DNA of 64,000 nt from Luteimicrobium subarcticum (GTDB lineage: Bacteria; Actinomycetota; Actinomycetes; Actinomycetales; Cellulomonadaceae). The stretch spans positions 576,222 to 640,221 of the forward strand of contig NZ_PGTZ01000007.1 of NCBI RefSeq assembly GCF_002798015.1, in the 5' to 3' direction. The notes below the pieces were generated by a model. That model saw nothing but the letters and a program-made list of their open reading frames with translations. It was not told the origin of the DNA and did not search any database. Position numbers and translations under genes: made by a program. This document shows, one piece after another, positions 21,224 through 45,288 of the stretch (the first letter of the stretch is position 1; each line of letters opens with the position of its first letter).

Positions 21224-23161
21224 TCAGCCCCCGACCTGCTCCGAGAGGTCCAGCCACCGCTCCTCGAGCGAGGCCACCTCCTCCTCGAGATCACGCAGCG
21301 CGCCCGTCTGCTCGCCCAGCCACACGAAGTCCGACTGGTCGTGCTCCGCCATCGACACGTGCAGCCCGTCGATGTCCTTCTGCAGCCGCGTCAGGCGCCG
21401 GTCGATCGACTCGATCTCCTTGCGCGCCGCATGGAGCGCGGCCCCCGACAGCGCGGGCGTGGACGGGCGGGCCGGGGTCCCCGCGTGCGGGTCTACCATC
21501 CGCTCGCTCGTACCTCGGTCGCTCCCGCCAGACCCGCCACGACCCGCACGCGAGGACCCCGGACCGCCCTCGACGTCCCCGCCACCGACACCCTCCGCCC
21601 CCGTGCGCACCGGGTCGGCGGCGCGCAGGCGGAGGTACTCGTCCACGCCGCCCGGCAGGTGGCGGAACCGTCCGCCGAAGATGGCGTACTGCTGGTCGGT
21701 GACGCGCTCGAGCAGGTAGCGGTCGTGCGACACCACGATGAGGGTGCCCGGCCACGAGTCGAGGAGGTCCTCGATCGCGGTGAGCATGTCGGTGTCCATG
21801 TCGTTCGTCGGCTCGTCGAGGACGAGGACGTTCGGCTCGTCGAGCAGGATCAGCAGCAGCTGCAGGCGGCGGCGCTGGCCGCCCGAGAGGTCCTGGACGG
21901 GCGTCTGGAGCTGCGCGCTCGTGAACCCGAGACGCTCGAGGAGCTGCCCCGGTGTGAGGTCGCGGGCGCTCGACCCCGTACCGACCTGGTACGTCGTCCG
22001 CTTGCGGCCCACGACGTCGGACACGCGCTCGCGGCCCACGTCCTTCAGCTCGGCGAGCTCCTGCGTGAGCGTCGCGACGTTGACGGTCTTGCCGCGCTTG
22101 ACCCGCCCGGACGTCGGGTCGAGCGCACCCGTGACCAGGCCCAGCAGCGTCGACTTGCCCGCGCCGTTCACGCCGAGGATGCCCGTCCGCTCGCCCGGCG
22201 CGATGCGCCACGTCACGTCGCGCAGGACCTCGCGGTCCGGCGTGGGGGAACCGTCCGCGGCCGGCGGCCCGGGGTACGAGACCGACACGTCGACGATGTC
22301 GACGACGTCCTTGCCGAGGCGGCTCGTCGCCAGGCGCGTCAGCTCGACCGCGTCGCGGATCGGGGGGACGTCCTCGATGAGCTGGTTCGCCGCGTCGATC
22401 CGGAACCGCGGCTTCGACGTGCGCGCCGGTGCGCCGCGGCGCAGCCACGCGAGCTCCTTGCGCATGAGGTTCTGACGCTTCTGCTCGACCACCGCGGCCT
22501 GCCGGTCGCGCTCGACGCGCTGCAGCACGTACGCCGCGTACCCGCCCTCGAACGGCTCCACGATCTGGTCGTGCACCTCCCACGTCGCGGTGCACACCTC
22601 GTCGAGGAACCAGCGGTCGTGCGTCACCACGAGCAGGCCACCCTGGTTCGACGACCAGCGACGCTTGAGGTGCTCCGCCAGCCACGTCACGCCCTCGACG
22701 TCCAGGTGGTTGGTCGGCTCGTCGAGGATCAGGACGTCCCAGTCGCCCACGAGCAGGTTCGCCAGGCCCACGCGACGACGCTGCCCACCGGACAGGTCAC
22801 CGACCCGCCCCTCCCAGGGGAGGTCCGCGACGAGCCCCGTCACGACGTCGCGCATGCGGGCGTCCGACGCCCACTCGTGCTCCTCGCGGTCGCCGACGAC
22901 GGCGTGGCGGACCGTCAGGTCGGGGTCGATCTCGCCCGACTGGTCGAGCATCCCGACGTGCACGTCCCGCCGGACCGTCACCCGGCCCGCGTCCGGCTCG
23001 GCGCGTCCGCCCAGCAGGTTGAGGAGGGTCGACTTGCCGTCACCGTTGCGTCCGACGATGCCGATCCGGTCGCCGTCCTCGACGCCCACGGTCACGGCGT
23101 CCAGGACGACCTTGGTCGGAAACTCGACGTGGAGGGACTCGCCCCCGAGTAGATGCGCCAC
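21224..23161 (-). CDS. ABC-F family ATPase (Uup-like) carrying a repeat-C insertion
   Basis: Soluble duplicated-ATPase ABC protein, 645 residues, with no membrane segments; ABC-F proteins act on ribosomes or translation quality control. Start is GTG at 23159-23161 (VAHLLGGESLHVEFPT), since all upstream residues of the longer frame look non-coding. Domain 1 has Walker A GRNGDGKST and signature LSGGQRRRVGLANLL; domain 2 has GVNGAGKST and LSGGQRRRLQLLL; DEPTN follows both. The C-terminal coiled coil (RKEIESIDRRLTRLQKDIDG) is of Uup type. Between domain 2 and the coil, residues about 534-564 are encoded by a complete copy of repeat C, in frame and without stops. That segment (Gly/Ser/Arg-rich) has no counterpart in the family. 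Confidence 0.9.
   Translation of the reverse strand: MAHLLGGESLHVEFPTKVVLDAVTVGVEDGDRIGIVGRNGDGKSTLLNLLGGRAEPDAGRVTVRRDVHVGMLDQSGEIDPDLTVRHAVVGDREEHEWASDARMRDVVTGLVADLPWEGRVGDLSGGQRRRVGLANLLVGDWDVLILDEPTNHLDVEGVTWLAEHLKRRWSSNQGGLLVVTHDRWFLDEVCTATWEVHDQIVEPFEGGYAAYVLQRVERDRQAAVVEQKRQNLMRKELAWLRRGAPARTSKPRFRIDAANQLIEDVPPIRDAVELTRLATSRLGKDVVDIVDVSVSYPGPPAADGSPTPDREVLRDVTWRIAPGERTGILGVNGAGKSTLLGLVTGALDPTSGRVKRGKTVNVATLTQELAELKDVGRERVSDVVGRKRTTYQVGTGSSARDLTPGQLLERLGFTSAQLQTPVQDLSGGQRRRLQLLLILLDEPNVLVLDEPTNDMDTDMLTAIEDLLDSWPGTLIVVSHDRYLLERVTDQQYAIFGGRFRHLPGGVDEYLRLRAADPVRTGAEGVGGGDVEGGPGSSRAGRGGSGGSDRGTSERMVDPHAGTPARPSTPALSGAALHAARKEIESIDRRLTRLQKDIDGLHVSMAEHDQSDFVWLGEQTGALRDLEEEVASLEERWLDLSEQVGG
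21472..21562. repeat. Repeat C copy 1, inside the ABC-F gene
   Basis: Arms 21472-21493 and 21541-21562 (22 nt each) are complementary with one mismatch. The core 21494-21540 (47 nt) begins TACCATCCGCTCGCTCG and ends CCCGCCAGACCCGCCAC. The core is shared with the copies at 29670 and 44604, while the arms are unrelated in sequence to theirs. It is translated as part of the ABC-F linker from the opposite strand. Confidence 0.9.
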
Positions 23162-23313
23162 CCCAGAAGGGTAGTCGCGACGTCGCGCCCGCCCGGCCGA
23201 CCGTGCACCGACCGCCCTGCTGCAGCCCCCGCCCGCTGGTGGCGCGCGCCCCGCGTCGCCCCGCTTGCGCCCGTCGCGCTCGCACCCGTCCCGCGCACGC
23301 CCGTGCGCGGTGT

Positions 23314-23485
23314 GTTCGTGACGCACACCGCCGGAGCCGCCACGCGGTCGCGCCGCGTTCGTGACGTGGAGCACCCGAGCTGCGGCGCGGTCGGCGTCCG
23401 TGGGAGGTCTTCGGGCGAGATGGCGCGGTCCCCACGCCGGCTGCGGGGGCGCTCGCCGGCTGCTGTGGTGCGTGGCGTCACGAAC
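23314..23485. repeat. Repeat B, copies at 3' side of DUF559 gene 2
   Basis: Forward units GTTCGTGACG start at 23314 and 23357 (43 bp apart). An inverted unit CGTCACGAAC lies at 23476-23485, preceded by GTGGTGCGTGG. The inverted unit supplies the TGA stop of the DUF559 gene. The rest of the 316-bp gap from 23162 to 23477 has no gene that I can support. Confidence 0.85.
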
Positions 23486-24413
23486 GCGCCGGGACGGGGA
23501 GCGTCGCCATGCGGGCCACCGCTGTGCGGTCGGGTGCGGCGAGAGCGGCCCGCACGGCCCGGGGCACGATCGTCGGGTCGCCCATGACGTCCTCGAACGT
23601 GAAGCGCAGGACCACGAACCCCCGTGCGACGAGCTCGCGGTCGCGCCGCCGGTCCTCGCGGTACTCACCGCGACGGGAGTGGTACTCGAAGCCGTCGCAC
23701 TCGACGATCACGTGCTCGACCTGCAGGTCCACCTCGCCCACGCCGACGTGGACGACGTGCGGCACCGGCGCGAAGCCGGCGTCGACCAGCGCGAGACGCG
23801 CGCGCGTCTCGAGGCCCGAGTCCACGCGTCCGTCCGCCAGGGCGAGCGCGGTCCACGCCGCACGGGGTGCGTTGGGCGCCAGGCACCGCGCGACGTCGGC
23901 CTTCGTCACGAGGTCGTCCTTCAGGGCGAGGTCGACCGCCTCGACGGCCTGGTCGCGCGGGCGGCACACGAGTGCCCGCGCGAGTGCGTGGGCGAGGGGT
24001 TGCACCGGGGCGAGCTGGTCGGGCGCCTGTGCGAGCAGGTGGGTGCGGTGGCGTCGGACGACGGCGAGCTCCGCCCGAGGCCAGCGGCTGCAGCTCTTGT
24101 CCAGGGGGACGGCGAGGTGCGTCTCTCGTGGCGCGTCGATGAGCTCGATCCCGTGGATCGCGACCGCGGTCACGCAGTCGACGTGGCCTCCGAACCGTGC
24201 CGCGGTGACGACGGCGGCGTGCGTCCCGGGCAGTGTGTACGTCGCGCGGGCCGCCCGGACGACGAGCCCGGCGCGGACGAGGTTGCGCAGCGTGTTCCGC
24301 TCGGCGTCGTCGCGGACCAGGTCGCGGTGCGCCGCCGCCCCGCCGAGGTCCCGGAGGCGGGCGAGGACGGTCGAGCTCAGCAGCGTCTGGAGAGTGGGCC
24401 GGCGGGGTGGCAT
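23478..24413 (-). CDS. AbiEi-like N-terminus plus DUF559 (Vsr-like nuclease fold) protein 2
   Basis: Paralogue of the protein at 1319-2263, 311 residues. ATG at 24411-24413 (MPPRRPTLQTLLSSTVLARL) is preferred over a longer frame. The N-terminal winged-helix-like region (RNLVRAGLVVRAARATYTLPG) aligns with RALVRTGQVDRVGHGTYAMPG of paralogue 1. The C-terminal DUF559 domain has GEVDLQVEHVIVECDGFEYH, YREDRRRDRELVARGFVVLR and FTFEDV. Here the presumed metal-site ELDG is ECDG. The block YREDRRRDRELVARG is identical in both paralogues. Repeat B units flank the gene on both sides, and one overlaps its stop codon. The biological role is unknown; a DNA-binding or nicking protein acting on its flanking repeats is a hypothesis only. 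Confidence 0.85.
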   Translation of the reverse strand: MPPRRPTLQTLLSSTVLARLRDLGGAAAHRDLVRDDAERNTLRNLVRAGLVVRAARATYTLPGTHAAVVTAARFGGHVDCVTAVAIHGIELIDAPRETHLAVPLDKSCSRWPRAELAVVRRHRTHLLAQAPDQLAPVQPLAHALARALVCRPRDQAVEAVDLALKDDLVTKADVARCLAPNAPRAAWTALALADGRVDSGLETRARLALVDAGFAPVPHVVHVGVGEVDLQVEHVIVECDGFEYHSRRGEYREDRRRDRELVARGFVVLRFTFEDVMGDPTIVPRAVRAALAAPDRTAVARMATLPVPARS

Positions 24414-29617: not shown

Positions 29618-29669
29618 GTCGGTGTCGTCCGGTCGTCGCCGGGCGTCGGGGCGTCGGCTTGGGGCGCGG

Positions 29670-29757
29670 GTGGGGAGGTCGCCCGGTCTCCGTCCGGCCC
29701 CTCGTGCCTCGGGGCCTCCCGCCAGACCCGCCACGACCGGGCGACACACCTCCCCAC
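29670..29757. repeat. Repeat C copy 2, intergenic
   Basis: Left arm 29670-29688 (GTGGGGAGGTCGCCCGGTC) and right arm 29735-29757 pair fully apart from a 4-nt bulge. The 46-nt core 29689-29734 ends CCTCCCGCCAGACCCGCCAC, as in copies 1 and 3. It lies 52 bp after fdhA and could act as its terminator. It also lies near a repeat B pair, so this 379-bp gap (29618-29996) is largely made of repeats. Confidence 0.9.
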
Positions 29758-29822
29758 TCCCGTCCGTGAGCGTCCGCGTACGTGCCTCGCGCGTCGCGGG
29801 CGGGCGGGCTCGGGGCGTCACG

Positions 29823-44355: not shown

Positions 44356-45288
44356 ATGACGGAGACGGCACTGCGCCTCGGGGCGCGCGTCGGGCCCCTG
44401 CCCGGGTGGCAGCTCGCGACGCTCGTCGACGCGTGGGACGAGAGCCCGTCCGCGCGCACGCTCGTGCTCGAGGTGCCGACGTGGCCCGGGCACCTGGCCG
44501 GGCAGCACCTCGACGTCCGGCTCACGGCGGAGGACGGGTACCGGGCGGAGCGGTCGTACTCGATCGGGGCCGGGGCCGGGGCCGGGATCGCAACGGTGGT
44601 TGAGGGGTCGGGGTCGTCGCGCGCGGGCTACCATCCGGCGCCTCGTTCCTCGGCGCCTCCCGCCAGCCCCGCCACGCCCGCGCGCGACGACCCCGACCCC
44701 GCCCTCTCGACGGACGTGCCGCGGGTCGAGATCACCGTGCAGCGGGTGCCCGGCGGGGAGGTGTCCGGGTACCTGACCGACCCGGTGGAAGGGTTCCGGG
44801 TGGGGTACCCCGTCGAGGTGCGAGGACCGGTGGGCGGCTGGTTCGTGTGGGACCCCGACGACACGGACCCGATGGTCGCCGGGCGGCCCGTGCTGCTCGT
44901 CGCGGGCGGGTCCGGGGTCGTGCCGCTCATGGCGATGGTGCGCGCCCGGCGGGCGGCCCGGTCGCGCGTGCCGTTCCGGCTCGTCTACTCGGTGCGCACA
45001 CCTGACGACCGTCTCTACGTCGACGAGCTCACGCGGCCGCGGGCGGGGGACCAGGGACTCGACATCACCGTCGTCCACACGCGGGCGGCGCCGCTCGACG
45101 CGCGCCGCGGCCCCGGACGCCTGACGCCCGCCGAGCTCGCGGCGCACGGGTGGCCCGCCGACCTCGAGCCCGTCTGCTACGTGTGCGGGCCGACGCCGTT
45201 CGTCGAGGTCGTCGCGCGCATGCTCTTGTTGCAGGGGCACGCGCCCGAAAGGATCCGCACCGAGCGCTTCGGCCCGGCGGGGGACTGA
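44356..45288 (+). CDS. FAD-binding ferredoxin-reductase-type protein with repeat-C insertion
   Basis: Flavoprotein of the ferredoxin-NADP reductase fold, 310 residues. The FAD motif RSYSI lies at about 73-77, and the isoalloxazine/phosphate region is VTVQRVPGGEVSGYLTDPVE or similar. The NAD(P)-binding glycine loop is LLVAGGSGVVPLMAMVRARR, and VCYVCGPTPFVEVVARMLL closes the C-terminus. There is no 2Fe-2S domain. Between the RSYSI strand and the next strand (VEITVQRV), residues about 83-115 are encoded by a complete repeat C element; normal members have only a short loop here. The gene is cotranscribed with the Moco protein upstream and probably feeds it electrons. Confidence 0.88.
   Translation: MTETALRLGARVGPLPGWQLATLVDAWDESPSARTLVLEVPTWPGHLAGQHLDVRLTAEDGYRAERSYSIGAGAGAGIATVVEGSGSSRAGYHPAPRSSAPPASPATPARDDPDPALSTDVPRVEITVQRVPGGEVSGYLTDPVEGFRVGYPVEVRGPVGGWFVWDPDDTDPMVAGRPVLLVAGGSGVVPLMAMVRARRAARSRVPFRLVYSVRTPDDRLYVDELTRPRAGDQGLDITVVHTRAAPLDARRGPGRLTPAELAAHGWPADLEPVCYVCGPTPFVEVVARMLLLQGHAPERIRTERFGPAGD
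44604..44700. repeat. Repeat C copy 3, inside the flavin reductase gene
   Basis: Arms 44604-44628 and 44676-44700 are perfectly complementary over 25 bp. The core 44629-44675 (47 nt) starts TACCATCCGGCGCCTCG and ends CCTCCCGCCAGCCCCGCCAC. The core matches copies 1 and 2, while the arms do not. Here the element is read in the opposite orientation relative to its host gene compared with copy 1. Confidence 0.92.

What the first reader, a model, noticed from the sequence alone, without database searches (positions are those of the whole stretch)
44604..44700. Family C: constant 47-nt core with copy-specific complementary arms
Three elements (21472-21562, 29670-29757, 44604-44700) share a core of 46-47 nt, yet their arms of 19-25 nt differ in sequence while staying self-complementary within each copy. 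At 44604 the arms pair perfectly over 25 bp. Conserved loop with compensatory stems points to selection on structure, or to insertion that copies the neighbouring sequence in inverted form. I know no such element in actinobacteria.
Basis: seen in the sequence. Interest (0 to 1): 0.85.

Follow-up and report, generated by a model that had tools for sequence, protein, structure and literature searches.

The report
Mobile hairpin repeat with drifting arms
A 105-letter DNA hairpin with a nearly unchanging 47-letter cap is scattered through the genomes of a whole order of actinobacteria, mostly just after genes and sometimes inside them, while its two arms change freely yet stay complementary, so it looks like an undescribed small repeat that spreads as a unit and is kept as a structure.

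Summary
The three window copies (21465-21569, 29664-29763, 44600-44704) belong to a family with 13 copies in this genome and over 116 in public genomes, reaching other families of the order. Each is a ~105-nt hairpin: two ~29-bp arms around a 46-47-nt cap with a 5-bp inner stem, constant loop (CTCGTNCCTCG) and constant strand (CTCCCGCCAGNCCCGCCAC). Covariation is overwhelming (640 double-change cells vs 194±11 shuffled); orthologous copies show compensatory changes. Two same-genome pairs at unrelated loci have identical arms and different flanks, so the whole hairpin disperses; 'copies its neighbourhood' is not supported, and arm-only sites are best read as deletions. Copies sit mostly 10-100 nt after stop codons; about one in six lies inside genes, including window copies in an oxidoreductase (44356-45288) and an ABC-F ATPase (21224-23668). 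Arm mismatches are C·A far more than G·T on the core strand (47 vs 15), against the local mutation spectrum: pairing on the opposite strand is what is kept. No Rfam match; Y1 transposases essentially absent. Best reading: an undescribed, non-autonomous palindromic repeat of the REP/ERIC/RPE kind, with cap-only sequence conservation. Mobiliser and function unknown.

The parts
44600..44704 (+). Hairpin element, copy 3 (the finding), inside the oxidoreductase ORF
   Evidence: R1 model match 90.9 bits; 25/25 complementary arms; fold -76.2 kcal/mol, z -8.8
44604..44628 (+). 5' arm of copy 3 (perfectly paired part)
44676..44700 (+). 3' arm of copy 3 (perfectly paired part)
44629..44675 (+). 47-nt cap (core) of copy 3: TACCATCC joint, inner stem, loop, C-rich joining strand
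   Evidence: invariant columns in alignment A2
44637..44641 (+). inner 5-bp stem, 5' side (pairs with 44653-44657)
   Evidence: covarying helix 2
44653..44657 (+). inner 5-bp stem, 3' side
   Evidence: covarying helix 2
44642..44652 (+). constant 11-nt loop CTCGTNCCTCG
   Evidence: partly by selection: the search pattern required it
44356..45288 (+). FAD/NAD(P)-binding oxidoreductase ORF; the element adds roughly 40 codons in frame between 'RSYSIG' and 'VEITVQRV'
   Evidence: Pfam PF00970 and PF00175; 29 homologues lack the insert
21465..21569 (+). Hairpin element, copy 1, inside the ABC-F ATPase gene (gene on the - strand)
   Evidence: R1 model match 85.5 bits; arms 29 nt, 93% complementary
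21224..23668 (-). ABC-F ATPase ORF; copy 1 lies upstream of its C-terminal domain
   Evidence: two ABC_tran domains plus ABC_tran_CTD
29664..29763 (+). Hairpin element, copy 2, about 50 nt after the stop codon of the ADH gene
   Evidence: R1 model match 70.5 bits
28379..29617 (+). Zinc-type alcohol dehydrogenase gene just upstream of copy 2
   Evidence: Pfam ADH_N

Best explanation
This is an old, non-autonomous palindromic repeat family that disperses as an intact ~105-112-nt hairpin (shown by same-genome pairs of identical hairpins at unrelated loci). What is recognised is most likely the near-invariant cap held at the tip of a long stem (inferred). The arms only need to pair, so they drift by compensatory substitutions until each locus has its own pair (shown between orthologues). 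The folded form that matters is on the strand opposite to the one carrying CTCCCGCCAG, i.e. usually the strand antisense to the gene just upstream (shown statistically, by which mismatches are tolerated); whether that is single-stranded DNA or an RNA is not known. Copies persist where a 105-nt insert does little harm: shortly after stop codons, in operon gaps, and in frame in protein loops. The enzyme that moves it, and any benefit to the host, are inferred or unknown.
For: Dispersal as a unit: L320/L322 (one genome) and L048/L294 (one genome) have identical 29-nt arms and near-identical cores with different flanks; 37 non-orthologous pairs share 16 or more of 19 inner-arm bases versus about 2.4 expected (a few of these pairs may be unrecognised orthologues). 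Structure kept: 91.2% of cells paired vs 56.2% shuffled, 640 vs 194 double changes, slid controls 120-174; fixed arm length, pairing falling to background beyond about 29 bp. Strand: isolated arm mismatches C·A 47 vs G·T 15 over 77 loci, p 6e-5; one-sided changes between orthologues C·A 51 vs G·T 12; while flanks show more C/T than A/G differences, 183 vs 105, the opposite of what mutation alone would give. Placement: codirectional gaps 27 with vs 10 against the element's orientation, nearer the stop codon in 29 of 37, only 3 in divergent gaps, 12 of 75 loci inside predicted genes. Copy number from about 0 to 30 between species of one genus.
Against: No transposase is linked to it: Y1 HUH transposases occur in 1 of 150 family genomes. 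No clean insertion with target-site duplication was found; sites without it mostly look like deletions or other hairpins. Many copies are at the same locus across species and genera, so transposition is infrequent or the copies are useful. The two same-genome pairs could be rearrangement or conversion between copies rather than transposition; L320 and L322 both lie where gene order differs from relatives.
Confidence: 0.55

Rival explanations
1. It is primarily a functional structured RNA element at the 3' end of genes and in operon gaps (mRNA stabiliser, processing site or attenuator), spread by occasional duplication and kept by host selection, as malE-malF REPs or neisserial NEMIS are.
For: Sits 10-100 nt after stop codons, oriented with the upstream gene; retained between nrdE and nrdF in several genera and between a binding-protein gene and its permease gene. 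Some relatives without it carry a different long hairpin in the same gap (L146-L152, L240), as if a hairpin is wanted there. Strong compensatory evolution.
Against: In the mRNA-sense strand G·U should be tolerated and C·A should not; the opposite is seen. No promoter signal for an opposite-strand RNA. About one in six loci lies inside genes. Two copies follow an ordinary terminator-like hairpin.
Confidence: 0.25
2. The arms stay complementary by mutation rather than selection: hairpins extruded in single-stranded DNA are corrected by template switching (quasipalindrome correction), and the strand bias comes from the actinobacterial mismatch endonuclease NucS/EndoMS removing G·T and G·G mispairs but not A·C or C·C.
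For: Isolated mismatches on the core strand: C·A 48, C·C 16, C·T 19 against G·T 14, G·G 2, T·T 0, matching the NucS preference known from the literature (own knowledge, not tested here). Complementarity holds even inside protein genes.
Against: Does not explain why the cap is nearly invariant over several families, or why arms have a fixed length of about 29 bp. A G-keeping bias on the opposite strand also follows simply from hairpin stability.
Confidence: 0.12
3. Insertion of the core copies one flank in inverted form at each event.
For: At the L315 locus four close relatives have the 26-nt 5' arm but no core or 3' arm; L219 also has only a 5' arm. Outer arm bases of non-orthologous copies are unrelated.
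Against: The full element is at the L315 locus in the more distant G137 (L064) and at the L219 locus in other Cellulosimicrobium genomes, so deletion is simpler. Identical arms at unrelated loci of one genome. Compensatory drift alone makes copy-specific arms.
Confidence: 0.05

Closest known systems
Rickettsia palindromic elements (RPE)
   Same: About 105-150 bp palindromes, present between genes and in frame inside protein genes (PMC2229807, PMC10969869). Here too 12 of 75 loci lie inside genes, 7 of the 9 in sense in one reading frame giving a YHPxPR-like stretch.
   Different: The reviews define RPEs by family sequence and terminal inverted repeats; here only the cap is conserved and arms differ per locus. 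Different phylum, no sequence link tested.
ERIC / RU-1 repeats of enterobacteria
   Same: About 127-bp palindromes in transcribed gaps near gene ends, with orientation-dependent effects on mRNA (PMC2229807); copy number varies strongly between taxa (PMC10969869).
   Different: ERIC has a consensus over its whole length including short terminal repeats and target duplications; here arm sequence is not conserved and no target duplication was found.
REP/BIME with TnpA-REP (RAYT)
   Same: Many short extragenic hairpins near stop codons; REPs are recognised as single-stranded hairpins (REP: PMC8266576 and own knowledge; for this family the strand is inferred).
   Different: Y1 transposase in only 1 of 150 family genomes; no conserved tetranucleotide at the base of the hairpin; the conserved part is at the tip.
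Double-hairpin elements of fungal and algal mitochondria
   Same: Mobile hairpins conserved more in structure than in sequence (own knowledge; only located papers that name them).
   Different: Organellar, two hairpins, no equivalent conserved cap.
Intrinsic transcription terminators
   Same: GC-rich hairpin after stop codons; weak T enrichment just after the 3' arm (26% vs about 14%).
   Different: No T-run, 29-bp arms, a conserved 47-nt loop; also found inside genes and after other terminator-like hairpins.

Membership tests
REP/RAYT system | Y1 (HUH) transposase of the TnpA-REP kind in the genome | tested here: not met
   PF01797 in 1 of 150 family genomes, none in this genome; the search rings in control genomes
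REP/RAYT system | GTAG-type tetranucleotide at the foot of the hairpin | tested here: not met
   No conserved base next to the outer arm ends
Rickettsia palindromic elements | In-frame insertion in protein-coding genes | tested here: met
   Oxidoreductase and ABC-F copies in the window; 12 of 75 loci
Rickettsia palindromic elements | Sequence relationship to an RPE family | not tested
   No RPE sequence was compared
MITE | Conserved terminal inverted repeats shared by copies | tested here: not met
   Outer 10 nt of arms at background similarity between loci
MITE | Target-site duplication | tested here: inconclusive
   No clean insertion found; one precise absence between TGCG repeats (L208 vs L207)
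MITE | Dispersal of near-identical copies to unrelated sites | tested here: met
   L320/L322 and L048/L294
Known structured RNA (Rfam 15) | Match to a curated covariance model | tested here: not met
   No match above a gathering score in six loci; two weak miRNA-precursor hits far below
Intrinsic terminator | T-run directly after the hairpin | tested here: not met
   Only 26% T in the first five bases
Integron attC site | Integrase gene and conserved outer recombination boxes | not tested
   Integrase not searched; no conserved outer box at fixed position

The most novel reading that the evidence does not exclude
A mobile DNA hairpin recognised as a single strand through its tip alone, with arms that any sequence can serve as long as they pair, moved by an enzyme that is not a known HUH transposase; its resident copies would then be a natural record of compensatory evolution in DNA hairpins and of strand-specific mismatch repair in actinobacteria.
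Probability: 0.3. Interest if true: 0.85.

Novelty: new variant of a known kind. Interest (0 to 1): 0.62.

Why it matters
Short bacterial repeats are usually defined by sequence at their ends. Here the ends are free to change and only the cap is fixed, over several families of one order, which suggests a different recognition logic. More than a hundred loci with orthologues at graded distances also give an unusually clean natural test of how paired DNA or RNA strands co-evolve, including which strand is folded. Copies inside enzymes add to the few known cases of mobile palindromes that become part of proteins.

Tried and rejected
Known RNA family: rejected, no Rfam match. REP/RAYT: rejected, no Y1 transposase. 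Core inserted into the loop of pre-existing hairpins: not supported, since whole hairpins with arms disperse. Inverted copying of the flank: considered seriously because four relatives have the 5' arm alone at the L315 locus, set aside because a more distant species has the full element there. Opposite-strand small RNA with its own promoter: no promoter motif enriched on either side. Plain intrinsic terminator: no T-run, and found inside genes. Strand bias as plain mutation bias: rejected, flanks are biased the other way. Two Zoogloea hits are chance matches without arms. Motif search in flanks gave only loose motifs at variable distance (GTCGGGTCCGG before, GTCRCCTYCG after), not fixed ends. 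Attempts to find a clean empty site gave deletions, other hairpins, or regions too diverged to align.

Full report
What is in the window. The finding is confirmed. At 44604-44628 and 44676-44700 the arms are 25/25 complementary around 47 nt, and the RNA fold of this stretch has z = -8.8 against dinucleotide shuffles. With the family model the three copies are 44600-44704, 21465-21569 and 29664-29763, all on the + strand. Copy 3 lies in frame inside an oxidoreductase gene with FAD- and NAD-binding domains; 29 homologues have only a shorter, variable loop there. Copy 1 lies inside an ABC-F ATPase gene before its C-terminal domain. Copy 2 lies about 50 nt after the stop codon of an alcohol dehydrogenase gene. 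Relatives at the same loci are Luteimicrobium (for example L013 with L043 and L055), so the window probably comes from that genus (inference).

The family. A core pattern gave 6 close copies in this genome; a covariance model gave 13, three of them in this one 64-kb window. Within the GTDB family 35 of 200 sampled genomes have the strict core; in one genus (the Cellulosimicrobium genomes, g8) counts run from about 1 to 30, while the large genus g20 has almost none. The model search over the order found it in 15 of 248 genomes, including five other families, with the same cap and copy-specific arms in most; the weakest of those hits (for example L396, L397) are doubtful.

Anatomy. Over 102 copies the arms pair at about 95% for positions 1-19 from the cap, dip at 20-22 (an internal TCC/TCC loop in many copies), pair at about 70-87% for positions 23-29, and fall to background beyond. 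The cap is TNCCATCC, a 5-bp inner stem, loop CTCGTNCCTCG, the inner stem's partner, then TCCCGCCAGNCCCGCCAC. On 61 copies, one per locus, 91.2% of paired cells are standard pairs (56.2% after shuffling), with 640 double-change cells (194 +/- 11 shuffled, 120-174 when partners are slid), and both the outer and the inner helix covary. The loop's constancy is partly by construction, because the search pattern required it; distant variants without it exist (L384, L398).

Arms drift but pair. Orthologous loci across species and genera were found by flank comparison. Between orthologues 68 base pairs changed on both sides and stayed Watson-Crick, against 112 one-sided changes among about 1000 pairs, far more double changes than independent change would give (estimate). 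In the nrdE-nrdF gap the element is present in Cellulosimicrobium, Luteimicrobium and Oerskovia with arms that differ strongly between species.

Arms travel with the element. Between different loci, inner arms are alike far above chance (37 pairs with 16 or more of 19 identical, about 2.4 expected), whereas the outer 10 nt are not; a few of those pairs may be orthologues that the flank clustering missed. In one genome L320 and L322 have identical 29-nt arms at different loci; in another L048 and L294 do. Their similarity ends within a few to about a dozen bases of the arm ends, with CTC after the 3' arm. This argues against arms being copied from each new neighbourhood. Sites with only the 5' arm (L219; L338-L340 and L343) are best read as deletions, because more distant relatives have the full element there.

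Which strand folds. Isolated arm mismatches on the strand carrying the core pattern are C·A in 47 and G·T in 15 cases over 77 loci (p 6e-5); the model alignment that includes other families gives 49 to 19. One-sided changes between orthologues are C·A 51, G·T 12. Mutation alone would push the other way: in flanks C/T differences exceed A/G, 183 to 105. On the opposite strand these mismatches are G·T wobbles, so folding of that strand is what is preserved. It may be single-stranded DNA or RNA; no promoter motif is enriched on either side. The alternative that mismatch repair (NucS) shapes the spectrum is kept as a rival.

Placement. Per locus: 27 between codirectional genes in the element's orientation, 10 against it, 18 in convergent gaps, 3 in divergent gaps, 12 inside predicted genes (gene calls from a simple codon-composition script, so approximate). 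In codirectional gaps 29 of 37 are nearer the stop codon. Some relatives lacking the element in the nrdE-nrdF gap and in the liv-like operon gap carry a different hairpin there (L146-L152, L240), which hints at a use for a hairpin at these places and supports the RNA rival.

Conclusion. Best reading: an undescribed, old, non-autonomous palindromic repeat that moves as a whole hairpin and is recognised by its cap. It works like REP, ERIC or Rickettsia palindromic elements, but fails the defining tests of REP/RAYT (no Y1 transposase) and of sequence-defined MITEs (no conserved ends). Mobiliser, target duplication and host function remain unproven.

Noticed in passing
L241, L242, L243 (liv-like operon gap): A second small hairpin element of roughly 50-60 nt (CTCCGTTCGCAAGCTCACTACGGAG) is inserted inside the cap of this element in three genomes.
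   Followed up: no
L146-L152 after the nrdE stop codon; L240: Genomes lacking the element in the nrdE-nrdF and liv-like gaps have unrelated long hairpins in the same place.
   Followed up: partly
L137, L143 (TGTCAG...CTGACA hairpins); L064, L101, L126, L135 (GAGGTAGAACC-type repeats): Other palindromic or tandem short repeat families with variable arms occur near these elements in the same genomes.
   Followed up: no
L317 3' flank: Tandem ~70-nt repeats that include the outer part of the 3' arm follow the element; similar partial repeats follow the L037 copy.
   Followed up: no
window 21465-44704: 3 of the 13 copies in this 3.63-Mb genome lie within 24 kb, all in the same orientation.
   Followed up: no
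L005 3' flank: A long imperfect inverted repeat built of GTCAGCCACGACCG units (59-nt arms) next to a copy.
   Followed up: no
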